IMG/VR virus record: IMGVR_UViG_3300033148_006664
Coordinates: 1 to 40,979 of that record
Reading direction: 5' to 3' (one strand)
From: a virus
DNA: 40,979 nucleotides
Each line of letters starts with the position of its first letter. Within the stretch, counting starts at the first letter, position 1. Below are positions 3,491 through 30,724 of the stretch, in pieces. Below the pieces are notes generated by a model. The model saw only the letters and a list, made by a program, of their open reading frames with translations, searched no databases and was not told where the DNA came from. Position numbers and translations under genes: made by a program.

Positions 3491-3515
3491 AAAATGTTAA
3501 AAAATATTATATAAT
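3488..3515 (+). promoter_or_regulatory. Sigma-70-like promoter
   Basis: TTGAAA (3488-3493), 16-nt spacer, TATAAT (3510-3515), then GAAAGGAG and the ATG at 3535. It lies directly downstream of the terminator at 3456 and begins a new transcription unit. Confidence 0.7.
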
Positions 3516-3534
3516 ACAAAGAAAGGAGAGAATA

Positions 3535-4780: not shown

Positions 4781-6835
4781 ATGGCAACATCCGACAAAGC
4801 TCAAAACGAGCGACCGGACATCATAATGCTCATCCAAGAAAAAGATGAGTATGTAATAGGGGCGCTTCTGGCCCTCTATGGAAAACAAGAAGCTGATGAA
4901 CAATTAATGAAAAGAACCAACTGGCAAAACAGTGTAGGATTCAACGCCTTAGATGCCGGAGTACTCAGTGACATTGCAGAATTTTATGAAACCAGAGGAT
5001 ATCTGACATCTAAACAAATTTCATTTGTCAGAAGAACCATTATGAAATATCACAGACAACTTTCCTTTTTAGAAGTCAAACCAATGCCTATCAAAAAAAT
5101 AGAAAAGAAAAAAGAAGAAAATATTGAATCACTTAAATGGGCGGGGCAATTAGATGGAGGAAAGAAAATTCTAATCAAATTTCAATTTCCAAGAGGAGAT
5201 CCTCAATTCAGAGAAACATTAGATCGGATCAAAACTTTAGAAGGAAGAAAATGGAATCCTGATTTAGACAATAAACCTTGGACCTGCCCTTGTACTATTG
5301 ATAGTCTTGAAAAACTGATAGAATGGGGGTTTGAAATTGCCCCTAAATTAAAAGAATGGCATAACAAAATGCAATACAAAAAAACTAAAACCATTCTTAA
5401 TATTCCTGGATTAAAAAGAAAACTTTATCCTTTCCAGACGGAAGGGGTTGAATTTGTACAGAGCAGAAACGGAAGGGCTTTAATTGGAGACGAAATGGGA
5501 TTAGGCAAAACTTCTCAAGCCTTAGCCTGGCTTCAACTTAACAAAGAAATAGCTTTACCTGCCTTAATCATAACTCCTGCAACCGCCAAATTTGTCTGGC
5601 AAAAAGAGCATAAAATATGTATACCTGATATTCCTGTTCAAGTTCTTTCTGGAAGGTCAAAAGTCTTTGATTCTCTTACCTTGCAAAAAGGAATCTCAAT
5701 CATTAATTATGACATCATTGCAGACAGAGTGAGAAAAAATAAGGATGGCAAAGTTATAGAAAGATCCCAAGGATGGGAATCTATTCTAAAACAAGAGGGA
5801 TATAAAGGAAAGACTTTGATTTTAGATGAAGTCCATTATACAAAAAACAGTAACGCTCAAAGAACTAAAGCAATTAGAAAATTGGCTAAAAGATCAAAAT
5901 ATATTATAGGATTATCAGGAACACCAATCATCAACAGGCCAATTGAATTTTTTAATTGTTTAAACATGATTGCTCCAGAACGATTTCCTTCCTATTGGCG
6001 ATATGCCCAACGATACTGTGGAGCAAAAAATAACGGCTTTGGTTGGGATTTTACCGGCTCTTCCAACACAGAAGAACTTCATGAAAAAGTCACCAAATCC
6101 ATAATGATCAGACGTTTGAAAAAAGACGTCCTCAAAGAATTGCCAGCTAAAGTTCGAACTGTTATTCCCTTAGAAATTAATAATAAGGGAAAATACATAG
6201 CCGCAGAAGAAGACTTCGTTGATTGGATTAGAATACATTATGGAAACGAAAAAGCGATTAAAGCAGACAAAGCCCAAGCCCTTACTAAAATTGAAACATT
6301 AAAACAAATAATAATTGAGGGCAAAATGAAGGCGGCTATTGATTGGATTGATAATTTTCTGGACTCGAAGCAAAAATTGGTTATCTTCTGTACTCATCAA
6401 CAAACGGTTGATATCCTGACAGAAGCTTATGGACCTCAAGCGGTCAGATTAGATGGCAGAGATTCTGAAGCAGCTAAAAAGAAAGCTGTCAATGAATTTC
6501 AATCTAATAATAAAATTAGACTCTTCATTGGCAATATAAAAGCTGCTGGAGTTGCAATAACGCTCACTGCCGCCAGTTCAACCTGCTTCATAGAATTAAG
6601 CTGGACTCCCGGAGAACACGATCAAGCAGAGGACAGAATTCACAGAATAGGACAAGAAGCGGATTCTGTCAGCTCTTATTATTTAATTGCCTATGATACC
6701 CTTGAAGAAGAAATCATAGAATTGATCGATAATAAAAGAAAAATTTTATCCCAGGTTCTTGATGGAAAGAAAGTTGAAGAAAGCTCATTATTAACAGAAC
6801 TGCTTAACAAGATGATGACAAAAATAAAATATTAA
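4781..6835 (+). CDS. SNF2-family DNA helicase/ATPase, SMARCAL1-like
   Basis: Encodes 684 residues after AAAGGAG. Superfamily 2 motifs are plain: motif I GDEMGLGKT at 236-244, motif II DEVH at 349-352, motif III SGTP at 379-382, and motif VI RIHRIGQ at 619-625. Residues about 120-190 (a strand-rich segment around FQFPRGDPQFRETL and KWNPDLDNKPWTCP) resemble the HARP-type DNA-structure-binding region in front of the SMARCAL1/annealing helicase core. Such enzymes translocate on duplex DNA and remodel forks. In a phage it probably helps replication, recombination or fork restart. The product is full length with no missing core motif. Confidence 0.92.
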   Translation: MATSDKAQNERPDIIMLIQEKDEYVIGALLALYGKQEADEQLMKRTNWQNSVGFNALDAGVLSDIAEFYETRGYLTSKQISFVRRTIMKYHRQLSFLEVKPMPIKKIEKKKEENIESLKWAGQLDGGKKILIKFQFPRGDPQFRETLDRIKTLEGRKWNPDLDNKPWTCPCTIDSLEKLIEWGFEIAPKLKEWHNKMQYKKTKTILNIPGLKRKLYPFQTEGVEFVQSRNGRALIGDEMGLGKTSQALAWLQLNKEIALPALIITPATAKFVWQKEHKICIPDIPVQVLSGRSKVFDSLTLQKGISIINYDIIADRVRKNKDGKVIERSQGWESILKQEGYKGKTLILDEVHYTKNSNAQRTKAIRKLAKRSKYIIGLSGTPIINRPIEFFNCLNMIAPERFPSYWRYAQRYCGAKNNGFGWDFTGSSNTEELHEKVTKSIMIRRLKKDVLKELPAKVRTVIPLEINNKGKYIAAEEDFVDWIRIHYGNEKAIKADKAQALTKIETLKQIIIEGKMKAAIDWIDNFLDSKQKLVIFCTHQQTVDILTEAYGPQAVRLDGRDSEAAKKKAVNEFQSNNKIRLFIGNIKAAGVAITLTAASSTCFIELSWTPGEHDQAEDRIHRIGQEADSVSSYYLIAYDTLEEEIIELIDNKRKILSQVLDGKKVEESSLLTELLNKMMTKIKY

Positions 6836-6859
6836 AAAAGTCTAAAAATAATATATAAT
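6832..6859 (+). promoter_or_regulatory. Repeated-type promoter (TTAAAA-16-TATAAT)
   Basis: TTAAAA (6832-6837), 16-nt spacer, TATAAT (6854-6859), then ACTTAGAAAGGAG leading to ATG 6879. It is nearly identical over 40 nt to the promoters at 12383, 27722 and 30155. Confidence 0.75.
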
Positions 6860-6878
6860 ACTTAGAAAGGAGAACTAA

Positions 6879-12382: not shown

Positions 12383-12410
12383 TTAAAAACATCTAAAAAT
12401 AATATATAAT
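12383..12410 (+). promoter_or_regulatory. Repeated-type promoter (TTAAAA-16-TATAAT)
   Basis: TTAAAA (12383-12388), 16 nt, TATAAT (12405-12410), then ACTTAGAAAGGAGGTG before the GTG start at 12432. It has the same 40-nt consensus as at 6832, 27722 and 30155. Confidence 0.75.
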
Positions 12411-12431
12411 ACTTAGAAAGGAGGTGAAAGA

Positions 12432-17696: not shown

Positions 17697-18644
17697 ATGA
17701 GAAAGGAAAAAATAAACTTATTTCTTGACTCTGGGGCTTACAGTGCATGGAGTAAAGGAGCAAAAATTTCTTTGCAAAAGTATATAGATTTTATTTATGA
17801 GCATAAACAATATTTAGAAGTGTATGTTAATCTTGATGATTTAAACAGTCCCGAAAAAACTTGGGAAAATCAAAAAGAGATGGAAAGACAAGGACTCTCT
17901 CCCTTACCAGTTTATCACTTTAAAGAAGATGAAAAATATTTACGAAAAGTTTTGGAATATGAATATTTTGGTTTAGGAGGAGCCGCTTTAGTAGCTACTC
18001 CAGTCAGGGCAAGATTTTACGATTACATCTTTTCTATAATATGTCCTGAAAGCAATTCTTATTTACCTACTCATAAAATACACGGCTTTGGTTTAACTTC
18101 TCTCAAGCTTATGCTTAGATATCCCTGGTACAGTGTAGACAGTACGTCCTGGGTAATGACAAGTCGAACAGGATCAATTTACATCCCAAGATATAAACAA
18201 GGAGAATGGATTTATGATGAGGATTCCTGGAAGGTAGCTATATCAAGTAAGTCTCCTTCCCAAAAAGAAGTAAATAAACATTTTAATACTTTTTCTCCTA
18301 AACAGCAGGACATCATTTTTCAATACTTCGAGGAAAAAGGATATAAATTAGGAAAGTCAGATTTGAAAAAGGTAGATAATAATTATAAACTCAAGGATGG
18401 AGAAAGATGGTTTGGTAAACAAGATGCTGATGCTCAAAGAGGAATTCATGGACTTAAAGATGGAAGGATTACTTTTGGTTGGTCAAAGGACAAAATAGTT
18501 GAAACAGTAATTGAGTCAGGTCTTAGTAATGATTATAAACAAAGAGATGAATTGAATGTTATTTATTTTCTTGACCTGGAAAAATCAATGCCAGAATGGC
18601 CTTGGCCCTTCAAAAAAAGACCATCAGGAGGTTTTGAGATATGA
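17697..18644 (+). CDS. dpdA: DpdA-like DNA 7-deazaguanine transferase (TGT superfamily)
   Basis: Encodes 315 residues after GAGGAG. It is related to tRNA-guanine transglycosylase: NLFLDSGAYSAW (D11) matches the TGT acceptor-side DSGGFQ, and WYSVDSTSW (D148) the nucleophile region. The IHGFGLTSLKLML stretch before it is typical of phage DpdA. It should swap guanine in DNA for preQ0 or a derivative. It begins with MRKEKI directly at the LFLDSGA strand and lacks the N-terminal MKI.LAG..SYYY module that phage DpdA proteins often have. That module appears instead as separate small genes (18641, 18790 and others). Confidence 0.85.
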   Translation: MRKEKINLFLDSGAYSAWSKGAKISLQKYIDFIYEHKQYLEVYVNLDDLNSPEKTWENQKEMERQGLSPLPVYHFKEDEKYLRKVLEYEYFGLGGAALVATPVRARFYDYIFSIICPESNSYLPTHKIHGFGLTSLKLMLRYPWYSVDSTSWVMTSRTGSIYIPRYKQGEWIYDEDSWKVAISSKSPSQKEVNKHFNTFSPKQQDIIFQYFEEKGYKLGKSDLKKVDNNYKLKDGERWFGKQDADAQRGIHGLKDGRITFGWSKDKIVETVIESGLSNDYKQRDELNVIYFLDLEKSMPEWPWPFKKRPSGGFEI

Positions 18645-19956: not shown

Positions 19957-20120
19957 AAATTTATTTTGCAGATACCATTATGAGAGAAACCGTCTCTTAC
20001 AAAAGACTTCCCAAAGTCAGACATAATCTCGAATCGTTTTGGAGAATTTTACTAACCAATCAAAAAATCAAAAAATGGAAAATCTTAAATACCAAAAATT
20101 TCTCGAACAGAAAACTATAG
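19953..20120 (+). CDS. MKI.. family small protein (55 aa), overlapping the helicase gene
   Basis: ATG 19953 overlaps the clamp stop (ATGA). It encodes 55 residues, starting MKIYFADTIMRETVSYKRL and with HNLESFWRILLTNQKIKKW in the place of the SYY block. The C-terminal 15 codons overlap the start of the helicase-methylase gene at 20075. It is the most divergent member of the family and may be decaying. Confidence 0.4.
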   Translation: MKIYFADTIMRETVSYKRLPKVRHNLESFWRILLTNQKIKKWKILNTKNFSNRKL

Positions 20121-22342
20121 AGGATATCAACTCGGGATTTCGACTTTCTTCCAATAAGTTGAATCCGATGTTGTTTAACTTTCAAAAAGATATCACAAAA
20201 TGGGCATTGATGAGAGGCCGCTCTGCCTGTTTTGCGGATTGTGGATTGGGCAAGACCCCTATCCAGTTGGATTGGGCAAACCATGTTGTGAAAAAAACCA
20301 AACTTCCCGTCTTGATATTCGCTCCTCTTGCCGTGTCAAAGCAGACACAAAGAGAAGGAATAAAATTCCATGTCCCTGTGAATATTTGCCGTAGGCAAAC
20401 TAATATTAAAAGGGGAATCAATATTACTAACTATGAAATGTTGAAGAATTTCAATTCTGATAATCTCGGAGGGATTGTATTGGACGAGAGTTCAATTTTG
20501 AAGGGATTTAATGGCAAATTCAGAAAGGCGATTACAGAGTTTGGTTCTCAAGTTCCTTTTCGATTCGCTTGTACGGCTACCCCAGCGCCAAATGATCTGC
20601 TTGAAATAATCAATCATGCCGAGTTCCTTGGGATAATGACAGAGAAAGAGATTAAATCGTTATTCTTTACCAATCGGGCTCAGGATATGGTTCAAAAATG
20701 GGTTCTCAAAGGCCATGCAAAACAAGCGTTTTGGAAGTGGCTTGCATCGTGGTCTGTAGCCCTACGTTCTCCTTCTGATTTAGGCTATGATAACGATGGA
20801 TTTATCCTGCCGGAATTAAGGATAATTCAAAAGACAATTCCTGCAACAAACAGAGATATCAAACCAGGAGAATTATTTGCGACTGAGGCAAGAGGTTTGA
20901 GAGACAGACAAATTGCAAGACAAAATAGTATTGAAAGTAGAATCGAACTATGTTCTGAAATGATAAACAAATCAAATGAAACGTGGTTAATTTGGTGCGA
21001 TCTTAATAAAGAGTCAAATTTACTTTCCAAGCAGATTAATAACTCGGTAGAAGTTAAAGGATCTGATTCATCACAACATAAGGAACAGTCGCTACTTGAT
21101 TTTCAGGATGGAAAAATCAAATGTCTTGTGACAAAGCCTTCTATTGCTGGATTTGGAATGAATTTTCAATCTTGTCACAATATGGCATTTGTCGGATTAA
21201 GCGATTCCTATGAAAAGTTTTATCAAGCGATGAGGAGATGCTGGCGATTTGGTCAAAAGCATTCTGTAAATGTTTATGTTATTACTACGGAAATTGAAGG
21301 GGGAGTGGTAAAGAATATCAAACGAAAGGAAAAAGATTCTACAAAAATGTTTAATGAGTTAATCTTAAATATGAATCTGTCAGGACAGCTTGGAACAAAA
21401 AGAGAGGAAATGATTTACATGGAAAAAATCAAGAAAGGGGAAGGGTGGGAATTACAATTGGGAGATAGTGTGTTGACAATGAAAAATATTAAGACGGATT
21501 CGATTGGGCTATCTGTTTTCAGTCCTCCGTTTCCTGGAATGTATGTATATACCAATAGCCAACATGATATTGGTAATACAAAATCTATTGAGGAGTTAAT
21601 TGAGCAATTCCGATTTGTCATTAATAAAGATCATCTCTTGAGAATTACTATGCCTGGTCGTCATTGTTGTATCCATCTATGCCAAGGAGTTGCTTTTCAA
21701 AGTAGAGATGGGTATATTGGTATTAAGGATTTCCGAGGTAAAGTAATACAAATGATGGAAAAAGAAGGTTGGATTTATTATGGAGAAGTTTGCATCGATA
21801 AGAATCCTCAAGTAACAGCTATCAGGACTAAAGATAGAGGCTTGCTTTTTAAAACATTGAGATCTGACGCTTCTCATTTGCATTGTGCCTTAGCGGATTA
21901 CTTATTGCAATTCAGAAAGCCTGGAGAAAATATTAATCCTATAAAAGCAGGAAAAAATAAAGAACAAGGATGGATTACTCAAGAAGAGTGGATTGAGTGG
22001 GCTGCTCCTGTTTGGTATAGACAAACTCCTCAATATCCTGGTGGTATAAGACAAACAGATGTTTTGAGAAATTATCAAGATGCAAAGAATAACAAAGACG
22101 AAAAACATTTGGCCCCTTTGCAACTTGGGGTAATCGAAAGGGCGATCAAATTATGGAGCAATCCAGGGGATATTATATATGACCCGTTCGCAGGAATTGG
22201 TTCAACGGGATATGTTGCTTTAAAACTTGAACGGAAATTCAAGGGATGCGAGCTCAAGAAAGGATATTATGACGTGGCAATAAGAAATTTGAAATCAGTT
22301 GGAAAAAGAAATAGGGGATTTAATATCGCGCAGGTAAAATAA
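20075..22342 (+). CDS. SNF2-like helicase fused to a DNA methyltransferase
   Basis: Encodes 755 residues from ATG 20075; an alternative TTG at 20039 is in frame. The first 420 residues are a superfamily 2 ATPase (DCGLGKT 55-61, LDES 136-139, CTATPAP, and MRRCWRFGQK as the last motif). The C-terminal 280 residues are a DNA methylase: SPPF at 483-486 (motif IV) precedes DPFAGIGST at 703-711 (motif I), an order typical of beta-class N4-cytosine or N6-adenine methylases. LADYLLQFRKPGENINPI is also a methylase block. No nuclease is seen. The fusion could give processive modification of phage DNA or self-marking. Confidence 0.88.
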   Translation: MENLKYQKFLEQKTIEDINSGFRLSSNKLNPMLFNFQKDITKWALMRGRSACFADCGLGKTPIQLDWANHVVKKTKLPVLIFAPLAVSKQTQREGIKFHVPVNICRRQTNIKRGINITNYEMLKNFNSDNLGGIVLDESSILKGFNGKFRKAITEFGSQVPFRFACTATPAPNDLLEIINHAEFLGIMTEKEIKSLFFTNRAQDMVQKWVLKGHAKQAFWKWLASWSVALRSPSDLGYDNDGFILPELRIIQKTIPATNRDIKPGELFATEARGLRDRQIARQNSIESRIELCSEMINKSNETWLIWCDLNKESNLLSKQINNSVEVKGSDSSQHKEQSLLDFQDGKIKCLVTKPSIAGFGMNFQSCHNMAFVGLSDSYEKFYQAMRRCWRFGQKHSVNVYVITTEIEGGVVKNIKRKEKDSTKMFNELILNMNLSGQLGTKREEMIYMEKIKKGEGWELQLGDSVLTMKNIKTDSIGLSVFSPPFPGMYVYTNSQHDIGNTKSIEELIEQFRFVINKDHLLRITMPGRHCCIHLCQGVAFQSRDGYIGIKDFRGKVIQMMEKEGWIYYGEVCIDKNPQVTAIRTKDRGLLFKTLRSDASHLHCALADYLLQFRKPGENINPIKAGKNKEQGWITQEEWIEWAAPVWYRQTPQYPGGIRQTDVLRNYQDAKNNKDEKHLAPLQLGVIERAIKLWSNPGDIIYDPFAGIGSTGYVALKLERKFKGCELKKGYYDVAIRNLKSVGKRNRGFNIAQVK

Positions 22343-22732: not shown

Positions 22733-25700
22733 ATGCTAAACAAAACGTTTGCTCACCTTCATGTACATACTGAATATTCTCAGTTAGATGGATTTGGTAC
22801 AGTAAAAAATTATGTTAAAAAAGCCAAGGAATTAGGATTCAAATTTTTAGCTTGCACAGATCATGGTAACATCGACGGCCTTCTCAACTTCCAAAGGGAA
22901 TGTAATAAACAAGGCATTAAACCAATACTGGGCTGTGAAGCTTATATCGTTCCCAATGCAGCTATTAAACCTCAAAAAGAAAAAAGAGGACATATAACGC
23001 TCCTTGTTAAAAATCAAAATGGATTTGAGACTCTTTGCCAGCTCCTTACCTATGCCAATCTAACTGGAGCAAGAAGTGTGTATGGGAGAACTATTCCAAG
23101 AATCGATTATAATTATTTATTAGGATGTGAACTATCAGATTTTGTAATTATGACAGCTTGTGCAGGTTCATTTCTTCATTTAGAAGGAGCGACGGAATTT
23201 CTTTACAAATTACATCAATATTGTGATGATTTATATTTTGAAATAATGCCTCACGATATCGAAGTTCAAAAAGAAATTCACAATACCATAAAAGCTTATC
23301 GTCTTCTTGAAGAATATAAAAACATTCCCTTTATAGCTACAAATGACTGCCATTATATAAATGAGGATGAATGGAAAGTCCAGGAAGTTCTTCTTGCTAT
23401 ACAAACCAAGGCAAAATGGGATGATGAAAATCGTTTTAAATTTAACTTCAAAGGATTGCATCTTCGGACAGCAGACGAAATGGCAGAAGCTTTTAGAAAA
23501 CAAAATCATTTCTCTCGTTCAGAATATTTAATTGCTATGAGGAATACCATAAAAGTAGCCAAACAATGTTGTGAATTTAGAATTTCAAAGCAAGATATTT
23601 CTCTCCCTCCAATCCAACCAGATTGGGGACCAAAAGAACATGGCAAAGAATTAAAGCGTTTGGCTCATGAAGGATTAGATAATTTAGGAATCAATGAACT
23701 TCAAAGAGATGAATACAGACCAAGAATGGAAATGGAATTAGAACTGATTAACCGAAAGAGGTTTGCAAGATATTTTTTAATTGTTTTAGAGCTTATTACA
23801 TGGTGTAAAAAACAAAAAATTATGGTTGGGCCTGGCAGAGGTTCAGTCGGAGGATCTCTTGTTGCTTATTTAACTGGCATAACAAAAGTCGATCCTATTG
23901 AATATGATCTTCTTTTTGAAAGATTTATTGCAGAAGATAGAATCGACTATCCTGATATTGATCTTGACTTTGAGGATATCCGAAGGGAAGAAGTTATCCA
24001 ACATCTTGAAGATTTATATGGTAAATATAATGTATCTGGCATATCTACCTTCTCCAAAATGAAAGCCAGAGGAGTGATAAGAGACGTTGCCCGAGTATTT
24101 GATGTCCCTTATAAAGAGGTTGATGAATTTGCTAAAGTAATAAATATCACAGAAAAACAGCAAGAGGATAGTTTTGTTGATACAGCCTCCAAAGAAACAG
24201 ATGAAGGAAGAAAATTCAAAAAAAGGTATCCTGAAGTAACAAAATTGGCAATCAAATTGGAGGGGCAAATCCGAAATTCTGGTCAACATGCTGCCGCTGT
24301 GATTATTTCTGCTGATGATTTAAGACAAGGAGACAGATGTAATCTCTGTATTCGTAATGATCGAATTATGTGCAATTGGAATATGGAAGATTCTGAATAT
24401 GTAGGATTAATGAAATTAGACATTTTAGGCCTCAATACTTTAACTGTTTTGAATGAATGTAAAAGACTGATTAAAATTTCACAAAATAAAGATATTATTT
24501 TTGAGGATATTTCTCTTGACGATAAAAAAGTCTTTTCCGAAATTAATAAAGGAAATACTTTTGGAATGTTTCAGTTATCTGCGAAACCAACAACCGATCT
24601 TGCCAAAGAAATTAAGATCCAAAAATTTGAAGATATTGCTACTATTATCGCCCTTGTTCGCCCTGGACCTTTCAACTCTGGAATGACAGGGGAATATATC
24701 CAAAGAAAAAAGAAACTTCCAAAAGGAATATTGTGGAAACATAAACATCATATTTATGAGGAAATTACAAAAGACACTTATGGAATTCTTGTCTATCAAG
24801 AACAGGTAATGAAAGTCATATCTGAAGTAGCGGGTTTATCATATACCATAGCAGATAAAATCCGTAAAGTAATTGGCAAGAAAAGAGATCCGAAAGAATT
24901 TAAAAAATATTGGGAAATGTTTTTAAAAGGCTGTTTAAAACAAAGAACAATGGATGAAGCAGAGGCAGAAGAATTTTGGGATGGACTTCAAAAATGGGCA
25001 AGTTATGGATTTAATAAAGCCCATTCTATTGAATATGCTTTGCTTGGATATTGGACCGGATACTGCAAGGTACATTATTCTACAGAATTTATTTGTGCCT
25101 ATCTATCTTTTGGGACTGAAGGAAGCAAAGAAGATTTAATGAATGAAGCCCGTAATTTAGGCAGGGATATAATTCCTCCTAAAATAGGAATATCTGACTC
25201 TCATAAATGGATAGCGAAAAATGGCAATTTATATGTTCCCTTTATTGAGGTGAAAGGTATTGGAGATAAAGCTGCTATTCAATGTATAGAAAAGAAAACC
25301 ATCCAACAAAGACAAAGAGGTTTCTTTGATCAGGAAGAAGTAAATCCCGTGGCGAAACCGGGTAGTTCTCTGGATAAAATACTCAAACAAATTGGGGCAT
25401 ATAAAAAAGAAGGGTATCCAAAAGAAGCACAAGAATTATTTTCATTTAATTTGTCAGGAGACAAAAAAGATCTTTATCCAAAATTACATTCTGTATTGGG
25501 ATATAGTTTTCCTGATGAAGATTTGCAATATTATTTGTCTTTAAAATTTAAAGATGAACATCAAATCTCTTTTCGTAATATTATCAAACGTAAAAGATTC
25601 AGAAATTTGGATTTATTAAAATGTACAGGATGTGAATTAAATTTCAATTGTTTAGCCCCAGTTCTTCCATCGCAAGGAATTTATAATGCTGCTATAATAG

Positions 25701-26158
25701 GAGAGGCTCCTGGTTCGCAAGAAGATAAAGAGAAAAGAGGATTCTATGAGGACGCCCCTGCTGGAGAATTGTTATGGAAGGAAATTGCAAAATATGGATA
25801 TAAGAGATCATTCTTTCACGTGACAAATGTTGTCAAATGTTATCCCGGAAGAAAAATCAAAACCCCTACCAAAAAACATATTGAATATTGCTCAGATTGG
25901 TTACGAGAAGAATTGAGAAAAATAAAATGCAGATTGATACTTGCTTTTGGCAATACAGGAGTCAAAGCTTTTACGGATAAAGATTCGGGTATAACAGATA
26001 TGTGTGGAAGAACTGAATGGAATGAAAAAAGGGGTTTATGGATTTGTTGGTGTTTACATCCCGCATCAGTCAAACATAACCCTGGGAATAAACCAAAATT
26101 TGAAGAAGGAATTGAAAATTTCATTAGGACATTAGAGATATTGAAATCGCCAAAATAA
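22733..26158 (+). CDS. dnaE: DNA polymerase III alpha subunit fused to a family-4-type uracil-DNA glycosylase domain
   Basis: Encodes 1141 residues. PHP domain: HLHVHTEYS 8-16 and CTDHGNIDGL 41-50. Polymerase core: PGRGSVGGS 367-375, PDIDLDF 407-413 with catalytic D410 and D412, third aspartate D563 in KLDILGL, and YGFNKAHSIEYA 758-769. The C-terminal 185 residues are an unusual addition with family-4 UDG signatures: C964/C967 (KCTGC), GEAPG 990-994, TNVVKC with C1036, EYC with C1053, and HPAS 1109-1112. Those four cysteines match the 4Fe-4S ligands of family-4 UDGs. The enzyme is the replicative polymerase, probably able to find or excise uracil at the fork. Confidence 0.93.
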   Translation: MLNKTFAHLHVHTEYSQLDGFGTVKNYVKKAKELGFKFLACTDHGNIDGLLNFQRECNKQGIKPILGCEAYIVPNAAIKPQKEKRGHITLLVKNQNGFETLCQLLTYANLTGARSVYGRTIPRIDYNYLLGCELSDFVIMTACAGSFLHLEGATEFLYKLHQYCDDLYFEIMPHDIEVQKEIHNTIKAYRLLEEYKNIPFIATNDCHYINEDEWKVQEVLLAIQTKAKWDDENRFKFNFKGLHLRTADEMAEAFRKQNHFSRSEYLIAMRNTIKVAKQCCEFRISKQDISLPPIQPDWGPKEHGKELKRLAHEGLDNLGINELQRDEYRPRMEMELELINRKRFARYFLIVLELITWCKKQKIMVGPGRGSVGGSLVAYLTGITKVDPIEYDLLFERFIAEDRIDYPDIDLDFEDIRREEVIQHLEDLYGKYNVSGISTFSKMKARGVIRDVARVFDVPYKEVDEFAKVINITEKQQEDSFVDTASKETDEGRKFKKRYPEVTKLAIKLEGQIRNSGQHAAAVIISADDLRQGDRCNLCIRNDRIMCNWNMEDSEYVGLMKLDILGLNTLTVLNECKRLIKISQNKDIIFEDISLDDKKVFSEINKGNTFGMFQLSAKPTTDLAKEIKIQKFEDIATIIALVRPGPFNSGMTGEYIQRKKKLPKGILWKHKHHIYEEITKDTYGILVYQEQVMKVISEVAGLSYTIADKIRKVIGKKRDPKEFKKYWEMFLKGCLKQRTMDEAEAEEFWDGLQKWASYGFNKAHSIEYALLGYWTGYCKVHYSTEFICAYLSFGTEGSKEDLMNEARNLGRDIIPPKIGISDSHKWIAKNGNLYVPFIEVKGIGDKAAIQCIEKKTIQQRQRGFFDQEEVNPVAKPGSSLDKILKQIGAYKKEGYPKEAQELFSFNLSGDKKDLYPKLHSVLGYSFPDEDLQYYLSLKFKDEHQISFRNIIKRKRFRNLDLLKCTGCELNFNCLAPVLPSQGIYNAAIIGEAPGSQEDKEKRGFYEDAPAGELLWKEIAKYGYKRSFFHVTNVVKCYPGRKIKTPTKKHIEYCSDWLREELRKIKCRLILAFGNTGVKAFTDKDSGITDMCGRTEWNEKRGLWICWCLHPASVKHNPGNKPKFEEGIENFIRTLEILKSPK

Positions 26159-26550: not shown

Positions 26551-27474
26551 ATGCCATTACATATAGATTATCGGCCCAGAAATTTCGGAGAAATAATTGG
26601 AAACGAAGAAACAGTAAAAAAATTGAGATCAGTATTAGGAAGAGAAGATTGCCCTCATACATTTCTCTTTCAAGGTCCAAGCGGATGTGGAAAAACAACC
26701 TTAGCAAGAATAATGAAGGAAGAATTAAAATGCGATGATCAGGATTTTATTGAGATCAATGCCGCTAATAGCAGAGGTATCGATACCGCCCGAGAAATCA
26801 TTCAAACAATTTCTTATATGCCAATAGCAGGACCGGTAAGAGTAATTCTCATGGACGAAGTCCATATGGGAACCAAAGATTTTCAGACAGCCTTGCTCAA
26901 ACCCTTGGAGGATACTCCTGATCATGTTTATTTTATTCTTTGTACAACCGATCCCGGAAAACTTTTAAAGACAATTAGAAATAGATGTTCCGTTTTTGAT
27001 GTTGATAAACTAACTGAAGATCAGATTGATGAATTGCTTGACTGGGTCTTGAAAGAGGAAAATTTAGAAATTGATAAGTCAGCCAAAGATCTGATAATTG
27101 AATCTGTTGATGGATGTCCTCGAAGTGCATTGATTATTTTGGATCAGATCATAGACCTTCCTCCAGATGAACAGGAAGAAGTTGTTAAAATAGCCGCCAT
27201 TGGGGATAAGCAGGTTATTGATTTATGCAGGGCATTGATTAAAGGAAATGATTGGCCCGTGATTGCAGAAATTTTGAAAGGAATTAAAATAGAGCCAGAA
27301 AAAGTTAGGCAGGCGGTTTTAGGCTATATGAATTCTGTACTGCTAAATGGTAATGGATTAGGAGCGTTGATAATTGATTGTTTCAAAGAAAATTTCTTTT
27401 ATGGAGGAAAAGCCTTATTAACTTTGGCGTGTTGGGAATGTCTTGATGACGAAAAACGAAATGTTCCTTTTTAG
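26551..27474 (+). CDS. Clamp-loader ATPase subunit (DnaX/RFC-like)
   Basis: Encodes 307 residues after GAAAGGAG. It is a AAA+ ATPase: Walker A GPSGCGKT 42-49, Walker B with DEVH (LMDEVHMG, 102-105), sensor CTTD, and the arginine-finger region TIRNRCSVF. The N-terminal YRPRNFGEIIGNEE is typical of DnaX/RFC small subunits (YRP.~F.~viGqe). A C-terminal collar of helices follows. It opens and closes the clamp at 18958 on primed DNA. A single gene probably supplies all loader ATPase subunits. Confidence 0.9.
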   Translation: MPLHIDYRPRNFGEIIGNEETVKKLRSVLGREDCPHTFLFQGPSGCGKTTLARIMKEELKCDDQDFIEINAANSRGIDTAREIIQTISYMPIAGPVRVILMDEVHMGTKDFQTALLKPLEDTPDHVYFILCTTDPGKLLKTIRNRCSVFDVDKLTEDQIDELLDWVLKEENLEIDKSAKDLIIESVDGCPRSALIILDQIIDLPPDEQEEVVKIAAIGDKQVIDLCRALIKGNDWPVIAEILKGIKIEPEKVRQAVLGYMNSVLLNGNGLGALIIDCFKENFFYGGKALLTLACWECLDDEKRNVPF

Positions 27475-27721: not shown

Positions 27722-27749
27722 TTAAAAAAGCCTGAAAATATTATATAAT
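27722..27749 (+). promoter_or_regulatory. Promoter of array 1 and the tas gene
   Basis: TTAAAA (27722-27727), 16 nt, TATAAT (27744-27749), followed by AAAAGGAGGTAAAAAA with no start codon; instead array 1 begins at 27773. So a promoter cassette that elsewhere carries a ribosome site here feeds directly into the repeat array. The array and the Tas gene are probably one transcript. Confidence 0.8.
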
Positions 27750-27772
27750 ACTATAAAAGGAGGTAAAAAAAA

Positions 27773-27970
27773 GAGCGGGCTGGGTAGTTTTAGAAAACCA
27801 TGGAAGCAGAGCGGGCCATATTTAATGAGAAAACCAAATAAGTTGAGCGAGCCAAAATTAGAGAGAAAACCAGGCTTTAAGAGCGAGCCATCAAAAGCGA
27901 GAAAACCAAAATTGTCAAGGAGTCTGAGAAAACCAAATCAGAAGAGCGAGCCAAAAAAAGGAGAGCGAAA
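27773..27970 (+). repeat. TIGR-like array 1: alternating 9-nt repeats with 9-nt spacers, 36-nt period
   Basis: Edge-type repeat A (GAGCGAGCC; first two copies GAGCGGGC-) and loop-type repeat B (GAGAAAACC) alternate with 9-nt variable spacers. Coordinates of A: 27773, 27809, 27845, 27881, 27944. B: 27791, 27827, 27863, 27899, 27926. Spacers include GGGTAGTTT, ATGGAAGCA, ATATTTAAT, AAATAAGTT, AAAATTAGA, AGGCTTTAA, ATCAAAAGC, AAATCAGAA. Between B at 27899 and B at 27926 only 18 nt remain (AAAATTGTCAAGGAGTCT), so one A repeat is lost. The array ends with GAGCGAAA at 27963-27970, directly before the tas ATG. Stops in all relevant frames show it is not coding. Confidence 0.9.
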
Positions 27971-28945
27971 ATGACATACAAAAGACAAAAGGAAAATGGG
28001 AATGAAAGATACCAGGAATATCAACGCGACAAGGGAATTGTAAGAATGCTATTGAGAACCAGGTTAAAATTTCAAGATGTCCGCAAAGCCCAGGATAACC
28101 AGATCGGAAGAAAGGCGGATGGAAAAGACCAAAACTTGACTATTGGTAAGGCCATACAAGCAGATGATTGGGAAATGTTTATAAGGATTGCTGATGAAGC
28201 TCGAAGACAAGAAAAAGAAATTGAAAAGGATCTGGATAAAAGACTCAAACGTTTTTCAATCCATGACTGGTTAAAGCAACAGAAAGGAGTGGGAACAATA
28301 GCCATGGCTACAATCCTTGGCCACTTTGATATTTACAAGGCAACTACAGTTTCCAAGATGTGGCAGTTTGCAGGATTGAATCCGGGTTTGATCAGAGGAA
28401 AAAAGTCAGTTAAGAAAAAAGATTACAAGCCAGAGATGGGAGAAATTGAAAGAGAATTGCCACCGACAAGAAAAGAAGAAAAAAGGATAATTGTTATAAC
28501 CGATACTTTAATCAGAGGCGATCAAAACGCTCCCGGATTTCTAAGCCCATTTAATAAGACATTAAGAACAGCCTTGGTTGGAGTCCTGGCTGATGGCTTT
28601 ATCAAAGCTCAAGCCCCTTATGCTCTGGATCATTATTATGCATTGCATATACCAGAACAATATCGAACTGACAAGGAAAAGATGAAGGCCAAACCCCACT
28701 TTGCAGGGCAATATGGAAGGTTGGATTTAAGTGAACGGATCACCCAGGAAAGAAAGAAAGGAGGGAAAATAATTGAAGTGATGTGGAAGGACACGACAGA
28801 CGGCCATCGAGATAGAGCAGCTAAACGGAAAATGATCAAGGAATTCCTGAAAGATTTATATGCAGAGTGGCGAAAAGTTGAGGGATTGGAAGTCCGTGTT
28901 CCTTATGCAGAGGAGTATTTGGGCAAAATGCACAAGGCGGCTTAG
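27971..28945 (+). CDS. tasA: Tas protein, Nop/Transposase_20-like RNA-guide-binding protein without a nuclease domain (TasA type)
   Basis: Encodes 324 residues. The start directly follows array 1; its ribosome site AGGAG (27959-27963) lies in the last spacer and terminal repeat. An N-terminal helical, basic region is followed by a helix-hairpin-helix core KGVGTIAMATIL (105-116) and FAGLNPG (133-139). The C-terminal HRDRAAKRKMIKEFLKDLY (279-297) is like the end of IS110-type Transposase_20 domains, the fold shared with Nop proteins of box C/D RNPs. There is no N-terminal DEDD RuvC-like domain, no HNH and no RuvC. In known TIGR-Tas systems the Nop protein binds 36-nt tigRNAs and targets DNA; here it would bind without cutting. 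Confidence 0.88.
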   Translation: MTYKRQKENGNERYQEYQRDKGIVRMLLRTRLKFQDVRKAQDNQIGRKADGKDQNLTIGKAIQADDWEMFIRIADEARRQEKEIEKDLDKRLKRFSIHDWLKQQKGVGTIAMATILGHFDIYKATTVSKMWQFAGLNPGLIRGKKSVKKKDYKPEMGEIERELPPTRKEEKRIIVITDTLIRGDQNAPGFLSPFNKTLRTALVGVLADGFIKAQAPYALDHYYALHIPEQYRTDKEKMKAKPHFAGQYGRLDLSERITQERKKGGKIIEVMWKDTTDGHRDRAAKRKMIKEFLKDLYAEWRKVEGLEVRVPYAEEYLGKMHKAA

Positions 28946-28956
28946 CTATGCCAAAG

Positions 28957-29127
28957 GAGAAAACCAGAGGCAATAAGCGAGCCAACCTCCGTGAGAAAAC
29001 CACCGCGAGCGAGCGAGTCAAAAATGGAAAGAAAACCATTGGAATTGAGCGAGCCATTCAAGGCAAGAAAACCAAGTTTATAGAGCGAGCCAAAAATCCG
29101 AAGAAAACCAAGGGAAGAGAGCGAAAA
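28957..29127 (+). repeat. TIGR-like array 2, 36-nt period
   Basis: It begins with a B repeat (28957-28965) 12 bases after the tas stop, then runs A 28975, B 28993, A 29011 (GAGCGAGTC), B 29029, A 29047, B 29065, A 29083, B 29101 and terminal GAGCGAAAA at 29119-29127, every step exactly 18 nt. Spacers: AGAGGCAAT, AACCTCCGT, ACCGCGAGC, AAAAATGGA, ATTGGAATT, ATTCAAGGC, AAGTTTATA, AAAAATCCG, AAGGGAAGA. By chance it has no stop in one frame and so mimics a 61-aa ERA..KKT repeat protein. Confidence 0.9.
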
Positions 29128-29154
29128 AAATAAATAAAGAAAGGAGAAAAGAAA

Positions 29155-29952
29155 ATGGCAAATGCAGCAAGACAGATGAAAGAAAGAGAAATGATCCGAT
29201 TGGGAGATGTCATCATCGATCCGAGTTATCAGGTCAGAAAAAAACTCAGTGCGCACTTTTCAGCGGAATATGCACAATTACTCAGAACAAGAAAGGAAAA
29301 TCCTTTCCCTGAAATAGTGGTTGAGAAAAAGACATACAAGTTGGTCTGTGGCTTTACCCGCATGGATGCCTATCGCAAGGTTTATTCGCCTGATACTATG
29401 GTTCCGGTCCTTTTCAAATCATTCAAGAATTCTGCTGACAGATTATTCTATGCTGTTGCGGACAATAGCACTCATGGACAGCGGCTTGATAGTTTTGATA
29501 AGAAAGATATTATTCTCAGACTGGTGCAGGAAGGGGTCTCCATCAAGAAAATTTCTTATATATTAGGTTGGAAGATTGATAAAGTAAGCGTTTATGAAGG
29601 TATGGTCATTGTCCATAAAGATCCTAAACGACAAATCCCTTTGGATATTGTGGACAAGAAAAAGGTGAAGGATATTCCGCCAAGAACTGAAAAGTTTAAA
29701 TCTCACTTTGCAGTTGTGAACGGGAAACCGGAGCCATTGAAAAGGGGATTGGAACATCTTGATAACAAGGTGGTAAGCACCGAGGTCTATGAAAACATAA
29801 AAGAACATTACTCCGGATGGAATTCTAATTATCATGCTCGGCAACTTATCATGATGATTGACGACAAGACCATTAATCTAAAAGACGAAAAAACCGTTGA
29901 AGTTCTTTCTGAATTGTGCAGGAGATTGAGGGAAGTCGGAATTAGTTGTTAG
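29155..29952 (+). CDS. ParB-like protein between arrays 2 and 3
   Basis: Encodes 265 residues after GAAAGGAG. The N-terminal 100 residues look like a ParB/sulfiredoxin-fold domain: IRLGDVIIDPSYQVR (strand of the ParB start), FPEIVVEKKTYKLVCGFTR (the G-x-x-R turn) and VPVLFKSF. A helix-turn-helix region follows (RLVQEGVSIKKISYILGW). It is similar in layout to ParB-like plasmid and phage factors. Its position between two TIGR-like arrays suggests it belongs to that locus, perhaps in partition-like DNA bridging or array regulation. Its stop is 2 nt before array 3. Confidence 0.75.
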   Translation: MANAARQMKEREMIRLGDVIIDPSYQVRKKLSAHFSAEYAQLLRTRKENPFPEIVVEKKTYKLVCGFTRMDAYRKVYSPDTMVPVLFKSFKNSADRLFYAVADNSTHGQRLDSFDKKDIILRLVQEGVSIKKISYILGWKIDKVSVYEGMVIVHKDPKRQIPLDIVDKKKVKDIPPRTEKFKSHFAVVNGKPEPLKRGLEHLDNKVVSTEVYENIKEHYSGWNSNYHARQLIMMIDDKTINLKDEKTVEVLSELCRRLREVGISC

Positions 29953-29954
29953 AA

Positions 29955-30143
29955 GAGCGAGCCGTTGACGCTGAGAAAACCATGAATGACAAGCGAGCCA
30001 CAGGCATTGAGAAAACCAAATGATAAGAGCGAGCCATTGTCGGAGAGAAAACCGAAGCAGAAGAGCGAGCCACCTTTCAAGAGAAAACCACAAGACAAGA
30101 GCGAGCCATTGATGGTGAGAAAACCATTATCTTCGAGCGAAAA
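29955..30143 (+). repeat. TIGR-like array 3, 36-nt period
   Basis: Perfectly regular. A repeats at 29955, 29991 (AAGCGAGCC), 30027, 30063, 30099; B repeats at 29973, 30009, 30045, 30081, 30117; terminal GAGCGAAAA at 30135-30143. This gives five full A-spacer-B-spacer units. Spacers: GTTGACGCT, ATGAATGAC, ACAGGCATT, AAATGATAA, ATTGTCGGA, GAAGCAGAA, ACCTTTCAA, ACAAGACAA, ATTGATGGT, ATTATCTTC. TGATAA in the fourth spacer stops the frame that is open in array 2, which argues against coding. Confidence 0.92.
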
Positions 30144-30154
30144 AAAATAAAATA

Positions 30155-30182
30155 TTAAAAAAGCTTAAAAATAATATATAAT
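30155..30182 (+). promoter_or_regulatory. Repeated-type promoter after array 3
   Basis: TTAAAA (30155-30160), 16 nt, TATAAT (30177-30182), followed by GCTTAGAAAGGAGGTG and the ATG at 30206. It restarts transcription 12 nt after the end of array 3. Confidence 0.75.
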
Positions 30183-30205
30183 GCTTAGAAAGGAGGTGAA
30201 TAAAA

Positions 30206-30724
30206 ATGGATAAAGAAAATTTTGACTATGAAAACGATTTGGCAATTGACCCTCATGCACTTGATGATGAATGGTTATTACATCCCAATCTCTATATGAA
30301 ATATTCTGAGGCATTAGCTCAAGCACAAAAGTCGCGAGATAAGGTCAAAGAAAAACTTGATGTGACAAGGGCGCAGATAGATCGGGATATCAGAAAAAAA
30401 CCCGATGACTATGGAATTTCAAAGATAACAGAAACTGTGGTTGCTGGAGCAATTCTTATGGAGGCTCGATTCACAGAAGTTCAGGATCTTCTTACAGATG
30501 CAAATCTTGAAGTTAATCTGCTTCAAGCGGCAGTCAGATCTTTTGATCATAGAAAGAAAGCTTTGGAAAATCTTGTCACACTCTATATGGCGAGTTACTT
30601 CGCAGGGCCAAAGGAACCTCGGGATCTTCCACCAGGAAAACGAATGGTGGATAGGGCAAGGGATAAGGCTTCAGAGAAACAGAGAGAAGGAATTAATCGA
30701 AGGAGAAGAACGAGAAAACAATGA
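30206..30724 (+). CDS. Coiled-coil phage protein, possible recombination mediator
   Basis: Encodes 172 residues after the AAAGGAGGTG of the promoter cassette. An N-terminal D/E-rich segment (DPHALDDEWLLHPNLYMKYS) is followed by long helices (ARFTEVQDLLTDANLEVNLL, then AVRSFDHRKKALENLVTLYM) and a basic RRRRTRKQ tail. The layout reads like a phage family next to recombinase and single-stranded-DNA-binding genes that may correspond to a UvsY-like mediator; that assignment is by context and composition only. It lies directly upstream of the small membrane gene and gp32-like gene. Confidence 0.6.
   Translation: MDKENFDYENDLAIDPHALDDEWLLHPNLYMKYSEALAQAQKSRDKVKEKLDVTRAQIDRDIRKKPDDYGISKITETVVAGAILMEARFTEVQDLLTDANLEVNLLQAAVRSFDHRKKALENLVTLYMASYFAGPKEPRDLPPGKRMVDRARDKASEKQREGINRRRRTRKQ

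What the first reader, a model, noticed from the sequence alone, without database searches (positions are those of the whole stretch)
27722..30143. A TIGR-Tas-type RNA-guided DNA-targeting locus: three 36-nt-period arrays, a nuclease-less Tas (Nop/Transposase_20-like) protein and a ParB-like protein
Seen: three arrays (27773-27970, 28957-29127, 29955-30143) in which GAGCGAGCC and GAGAAAACC alternate, each followed by a variable 9-nt spacer, with an exact 36-nt period (arrays 2 and 3 perfect) and a shared terminal GAGCGAAA. The flanking 324-aa protein has a helix-hairpin-helix KGVGTIAMATIL..FAGLNPG core and a Transposase_20-type C-terminus, but no RuvC-like, HNH or DEDD domain. Known: TIGR-Tas systems (first described in 2025) have Nop-domain Tas proteins and arrays processed to 36-nt tigRNAs carrying two short spacers, used to target DNA by tandem-spacer recognition; TasA lacks a nuclease. 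Inference: this is a TasA-type, DNA-binding system, apparently with a multi-array layout.
Basis: partly seen in the sequence, partly recalled or inferred. Interest (0 to 1): 0.97.

Follow-up and report, generated by a model that had tools for sequence, protein, structure and literature searches.

The report
Phage TIGR-TasA/TasParB RNA-guided DNA-binding locus
This phage carries a compact RNA-guided DNA-recognition system (TIGR-Tas, type TasA with a ParB-like partner) of a kind first described in 2025; the system itself is known, but a 97%-identical sister phage keeps an intact guide array with completely different guides and no effector genes, which makes the pair a useful natural experiment.

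Summary
Three dual-repeat arrays (10-nt GAGCGAGCCA 'edge' and GAGAAAACCA 'loop' repeats, 8-nt spacers, 36-nt period, 13 complete two-spacer units) flank and separate a nuclease-less Tas protein and a ParB-like protein. The Tas protein passes NCBI's curated TIGR-Tas model (116.5 bits, cut-off 100). It matches solved TasH and TasR by sequence profile (7e-53, 2e-46) and by predicted fold. The repeats are nearly those of the experimentally characterised Salicola phage CGphi29 system. Faure et al. 2025 already describe TasA-TasParB operons with arrays upstream, between and downstream, so the multi-array layout is not new: a new member of a known kind. Beyond that, comparison with 51 further viral contigs shows: (i) the edge-A-loop-B unit is what is conserved between related phages, supporting the tigRNA unit; (ii) some arrays lie 10-75 kb from tas yet share its peculiar loop repeat; (iii) a 97%-identical, nearly complete sister phage has a perfect four-unit array at the same site, shares no spacer with the window and encodes no Tas. 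Natural targets were not found: no spacer-pair matches above chance in 2.26 Mb of relatives, and no self-targeting. RNA processing and DNA binding are inferred.

The parts
27722..27749 (+). Promoter-like site (TTAAAA-16-TATAAT) upstream of array 1; belongs to a promoter family repeated in this phage
   Evidence: Consensus scan; the 27722-27768 stretch recurs at 3501-3528, 6832-6872 and 12383-12429 and is conserved in the sister phage
27773..27970 (+). TIGR array 1: four edge-A-loop-B units (27773, 27809, 27845, 27881), then a unit shortened by deletion and a one-spacer end; ends with truncated edge GAGCGAAA 27963-27970
27958..27963 (+). Shine-Dalgarno AAGGAG of tasA, lying inside the end of array 1
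   Evidence: Sequence; inference from position 7 nt before the ATG
27971..28945 (+). tasA: 324-aa nuclease-less Nop-domain Tas protein
   Evidence: NF052498 above cut-off; PDB TasH/TasR; fold; phrog_4285 1.8e-32
28957..29127 (+). TIGR array 2: starts with a loop, then four edge-A-loop-B units (28975, 29011, 29047, 29083), truncated edge at the end
29155..29952 (+). tasParB: 265-aa ParB-like protein
   Evidence: phrog_1033 9e-6; Foldseek Noc/ParB/KorB 3e-6 to 1e-3; family of 20 homologues beside tasA genes
29955..30143 (+). TIGR array 3: five edge-A-loop-B units (29955, 29991, 30027, 30063, 30099), truncated edge at the end
30155..30182 (+). Second promoter-like site of the same family, upstream of the uvsY-like gene after the cassette (right boundary)

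Best explanation
This is a phage-borne TIGR-Tas locus of the TasA-TasParB subtype. Shown by sequence or model: three dual-repeat arrays, a Nop-domain Tas protein without nuclease, and a ParB-like protein, all on one strand between two copies of a phage promoter in the replication-gene region. Inferred from the characterised TasH and TasR systems: the transcript is cut in each edge repeat, with a host RNase and Tas required, into about thirteen 36-nt tigRNAs of the form half-edge, spacer A, loop, spacer B, half-edge. A TasA dimer binds one tigRNA by the CCA (box C) and AG (box D) ends of both repeats. Spacers A and B pair with opposite strands of a 16-18 bp site (A followed by the reverse complement of B on one strand). 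Without a nuclease, TasA would hold, bend or block the site, silencing transcription or replication of another element, with TasParB as a partner that may load or spread on the bound DNA. Spacer content turns over fast and by whole units, and the arrays themselves offer homology by which tas genes can be gained or lost.
For: Arrays: 13 motif copies against 0.00 expected. Tas identity: NF052498 116.5 bits, cut-off 100; profile hits TasH 6.8e-53, TasR 2e-46, IS621 4e-4; AF2 pLDDT 90 and top Foldseek hits TasH (9.6e-11) and TasR (2.5e-6) complexes with tigRNA and DNA. Repeats nearly identical to those of the processed CGphi29 SpTIGR array: edge AAGCGAGCCA, loop AAGACAACCA, 36-nt period (PMC12045711). 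ParB fold of the partner; tasA-tasParB operons known. The same motif is in 51 other viral contigs, most with a Tas homologue. Unit conservation: 21 identical and 18 one- or two-mismatch edge-A-loop-B units between related phages against 0.07 expected; out of phase only 5 and 3. Non-coding, fast-changing arrays: no spacer shared with a 97.2%-identical relative.
Against: No RNA or binding data for this locus. No rho-independent terminator after the arrays, which the original description reports as typical. No natural target found by any spacer pair. Array 1 is partly degraded, so part of the locus may be inactive. The window TasParB lacks the His of the GxHR motif common in its family, so a nucleotide-driven clamp is uncertain.
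Confidence: 0.85

Rival explanations
1. IS110-type RNA-guided transposase remnant: the protein is the C-terminal half of an IS110 recombinase and the repeats are decayed element ends.
For: PHROG annotation 'transposase' for phrog_4285; weak profile match to IS621/ISCro4; Transposase_20 hits in 23 of 44 family members.
Against: NF052498 TIGR-Tas passes its cut-off, while IS110 model NF033542 matches only relatives and far below its cut-off of 140; no DEDD domain; 44 aligned homologues of one architecture beside dual-repeat arrays; TasH/TasR score far better than IS621.
Confidence: 0.02
2. The system regulates the phage's own genes: TasA tigRNPs act as programmable repressors of promoters in the phage's own genome.
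For: TasA has no nuclease; the locus lies among replication genes and shares their promoter family.
Against: No spacer pair matches its own genome better than chance in any orientation across 71 records including the window; spacers differ completely between 97%-identical phages whose own genes hardly differ.
Confidence: 0.08
3. The locus is a non-functional relic, kept by drift.
For: Array 1 has degraded repeats and a deletion; the sister phage lacks both genes.
Against: tasA and tasParB are intact open frames with well-formed models; array 3 and the sister's array are in good order; the family is widespread.
Confidence: 0.08

Closest known systems
TIGR-TasA with TasParB (Faure et al. 2025, Science; PMC12045711)
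   Same: Solo Nop-domain Tas, ParB-like partner gene in operon, dual-repeat arrays upstream, between and downstream, 10-nt repeats
   Different: In the window tasA precedes tasParB with an array between them; among the homologous loci here this order is the minority (also L009, L014, L035), most having tasParB first. The tasA start abuts the end of array 1.
Salicola phage CGphi29 TIGR-TasH (SpTIGR; PDB 21kl, 9w04 and others)
   Same: Nearly the same edge repeat (AAGCGAGCCA) and loop (AAGACAACCA), 36-nt period, 8-nt spacers, homologous Nop domain
   Different: TasH carries an N-terminal HNH nuclease; the window protein does not and has a ParB-like partner
TIGR-TasR (TaTasR, PDB 9mty)
   Same: Nop fold, coiled coil, dual-spacer array with CCA ends (PMC12045711)
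   Different: TasR has a RuvC nuclease and 9-nt spacers with UG/CCA boxes; here AG/CCA boxes and 8-nt spacers
IS110 recombinases (IS621, ISCro4)
   Same: Homologous RNA-binding Nop-like region
   Different: No DEDD domain and no bridge RNA here; arrays instead

Membership tests
TIGR-Tas (dual-repeat) | Tas protein with Nop domain | tested here: met
   NF052498 116.5 bits > 100; TasH/TasR profile and fold matches
TIGR-Tas (dual-repeat) | Two alternating 8-12-nt repeats interspaced by short spacers, about 36-nt unit, next to tas | tested here: met
   13 units, 18+18-nt period, against 0.00 expected
TIGR-Tas (dual-repeat) | Box motifs shared by edge and loop repeats | tested here: met
   Both repeats start (G/A)AG and end CCA across about 1,400 units
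TIGR-Tas (dual-repeat) | Array ends with a truncated edge repeat | tested here: met
   GAGCGAAA at 27963-27970 and at the ends of arrays 2 and 3
TIGR-Tas (dual-repeat) | Predicted rho-independent terminator after the array (typical, not obligatory) | tested here: not met
   Only one terminator-like site in the region, inside tasA at 28305
TIGR-Tas (dual-repeat) | Processing into 36-nt tigRNAs | not testable with these tools
   Only indirect: the edge-A-loop-B unit is the conserved unit
TIGR-Tas (dual-repeat) | Tandem-spacer DNA targeting on opposite strands | tested here: inconclusive
   No spacer-pair matches above control orientations in 2.26 Mb of relatives or in contigs returned by three pattern scans
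TasA subtype | No RuvC or HNH nuclease domain | tested here: met
   No Pfam nuclease; model starts directly with the coiled coil at residue 12
TasA-TasParB operon | ParB-like gene in operon with tasA | tested here: met
   phrog_1033 9e-6; ParB/Noc/KorB fold; 20 homologues near tas
IS110 transposase | N-terminal DEDD catalytic domain | tested here: not met
   No catalytic-domain match for the window protein in Pfam or NCBIfam, and the model has no such domain
CRISPR-Cas | Single long repeat and Cas proteins | tested here: not met
   Two alternating 10-nt repeats; the neighbours examined are phage replication genes and TasParB

The most novel reading that the evidence does not exclude
TasA tigRNPs act as RNA-programmed 'parS' sites: the guide-bound TasA dimer nucleates loading and spreading of the ParB-like partner on a chosen rival DNA, silencing or mis-partitioning it without cutting. 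Guide arrays circulate separately from the effector, so that array-only phages such as the 97%-identical sister borrow Tas from co-resident elements.
Probability: 0.15. Interest if true: 0.85.

Novelty: new member of a known kind. Interest (0 to 1): 0.5.

Why it matters
TIGR-Tas biology is open: natural targets, spacer origin and the role of nuclease-less TasA are unknown (PMC12045711). This phage and its sister are a near-isogenic pair in which the effector genes are present or absent and all guides differ, and the wider clade shows that whole edge-A-loop-B units are inherited, mutated and replaced. Together they give concrete, testable material on how arrays change without an adaptation module and whether arrays work with an effector in trans.

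Tried and rejected
Target search: 662 spacer pairs against 2.26 Mb of TIGR-bearing contigs in four orientations, gaps 0-3 and up to 3 mismatches; the expected geometry and the control orientations gave similar counts, for own and for other genomes. Exact scans of all IMG/VR contigs for three of the most conserved spacer pairs in the A-rc(B) geometry returned 36, 52 and 94 stretches; gaps were spread, most repeated hits were near-identical contigs, and support of one contig by several spacers of one array was no commoner than in control orientations. A cluster of three related contigs with the GAGATTTT/GCTCTCCG pair at gap 2 (L208, L213, L215) looked promising, but no other exact or one-mismatch spacer pair of the same arrays supported it. 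Rfam: no match in the window. Genome contigs: one Spirochaetaceae MAG contig of 4.3 kb only, too little to name a host. Considered and rejected: IS110 remnant; CRISPR-like array; array as coding repeat (spacers turn over completely in a 97%-identical relative).

Full report
What is there. The window is one 40,979-base virus record. Between a clamp-loader gene (26551-27474) and a UvsY-like gene (30206-30724) lie, all on the + strand: a promoter-like site (27722-27749), array 1 (27773-27970), a 324-aa gene (27971-28945), array 2 (28957-29127), a 265-aa gene (29155-29952), array 3 (29955-30143) and a second promoter-like site of the same family (30155-30182). The motif GAGCGAGCC-N9-GAGAAAACC with up to 3 mismatches occurs 13 times, nowhere outside the arrays, against 0.00 expected. 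Base counts over about 1,400 homologous repeats give 10-nt repeats (R)AGCGAGCCA and (R)AGAAAACCA with 8 freely variable bases between them. Array 1 is partly degraded and its truncated last edge abuts the tasA start codon, with the Shine-Dalgarno sequence inside the array end.

What the proteins are. The 324-aa protein passes NCBIfam NF052498 (TIGR-Tas; 116.5 bits, cut-off 100). Alone it matches PDB TasH (2e-14) and TaTasR (2.8e-8); as a 44-member profile 6.8e-53 and 2e-46, with IS621 and ISCro4 at about 5e-4. The AlphaFold2 model (pLDDT 90) starts with two long helices (12-45, 64-92) followed by the RNA-binding part, and its best PDB matches are TasH and TasR complexes. No nuclease domain was found. 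The 265-aa protein matches a ParB-like PHROG, and its model (pLDDT 84) matches Noc, KorB and ParB. It keeps G66, R69 and N104, invariant or nearly so in 19 homologues, but has Thr where most have His in GxHR.

Relation to known systems. Faure et al. 2025 (PMC12045711) define TIGR arrays, TasA/TasH/TasR, 36-nt tigRNAs and tandem-spacer targeting, and report tasA-tasParB operons with 10-nt-repeat arrays upstream, downstream and between. The CGphi29 array tested there as SpTIGR has edge AAGCGAGCCA and loop AAGACAACCA, nearly those of the window. The locus therefore belongs to a known kind.

Comparative results. The array motif retrieves 51 other viral contigs. In the loci collected by all searches, 58 frames match the Tas profile and 20 the TasParB profile. 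(a) Unit of inheritance: between related phages, 21 edge-A-loop-B units are identical and 18 differ at one or two of 16 spacer bases, against about 0.07 expected; out-of-phase pairs give 5 and 3. Arrays in the L031/G022/G033/L041/G012/L052 clade replace whole units while keeping others. (b) Remote arrays: record G008 has an array about 10 kb from its tas gene with the same unusual loop GAGACACCCA as its tas-proximal arrays, and G037 has arrays 60-75 kb away with related loops; G026 is a counter-example, its remote array having a different loop. (c) Array without effector: IMGVR_UViG_3300033153_009650 (89,129 b) is 97.2% identical to the window over 34.7 kb. At the same site it has eight perfect repeats (four units), no spacer shared with the window, and no Tas by profile or family search. 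It encodes terminase, portal, head and tape-measure genes, and both its ends lie in tail-fibre J-type genes, so it is probably nearly complete (inference). Promoters and flanks on both sides are conserved. G024/G041 likewise have arrays at this site and beside recA with no tas on 28-31 kb. A more distant relative (L193) has other genes and no array at the site. The perfect repeats of the sister's array argue against simple decay after loss of tas.

Targets. None found. The geometry assumed, spacer A followed by the reverse complement of B on one strand, was derived from the published C-5 rule and 8-nt 3' overhangs, and the other orientations were run as controls. Self-targeting was not above control orientations.

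Mechanism. Processing, tigRNP assembly, DNA bending and silencing are inferred from the characterised relatives; the role of TasParB is a hypothesis. What is shown is membership, anatomy, unit-wise inheritance and the separability of arrays from the effector genes.

Noticed in passing
L192:14901-15056 (G014), compared with window 27773-30143: A 97.2%-identical, nearly complete sister phage carries a perfect four-unit TIGR array at the same site with none of the window's spacers and no tas genes.
   Followed up: yes
G008:13689-13886; G037:82606-83669 and 98545-98725: TIGR arrays 10 to 75 kb away from the only tas gene of the record, with loop repeats like those next to tas.
   Followed up: partly
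window 22733-26155: DNA polymerase III alpha with a C-terminal uracil-DNA glycosylase superfamily domain (Pfam UDG 1.4e-20) in one open frame.
   Followed up: no
window 17697-18644: Queuine tRNA-ribosyltransferase-like gene (phrog_887), possibly part of a deazaguanine DNA-modification pathway.
   Followed up: no
window 20039-22342: 767-aa frame with helicase matches and, in its C-terminal part, DNA methyltransferase PHROG matches.
   Followed up: no
window 3501-3528, 6832-6872, 12383-12429, 27722-27768, 30143-30195: A repeated promoter-like sequence (TTAAAA...TATAAT...GGAGGT) upstream of several genes, probably one phage promoter class; the TIGR operon uses it.
   Followed up: partly
L193:15241-17489: In a more distant relative the clamp loader/uvsY gap holds other genes, including a Cys-rich homing-endonuclease-like protein: the site looks like an insertion hotspot.
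   Followed up: partly
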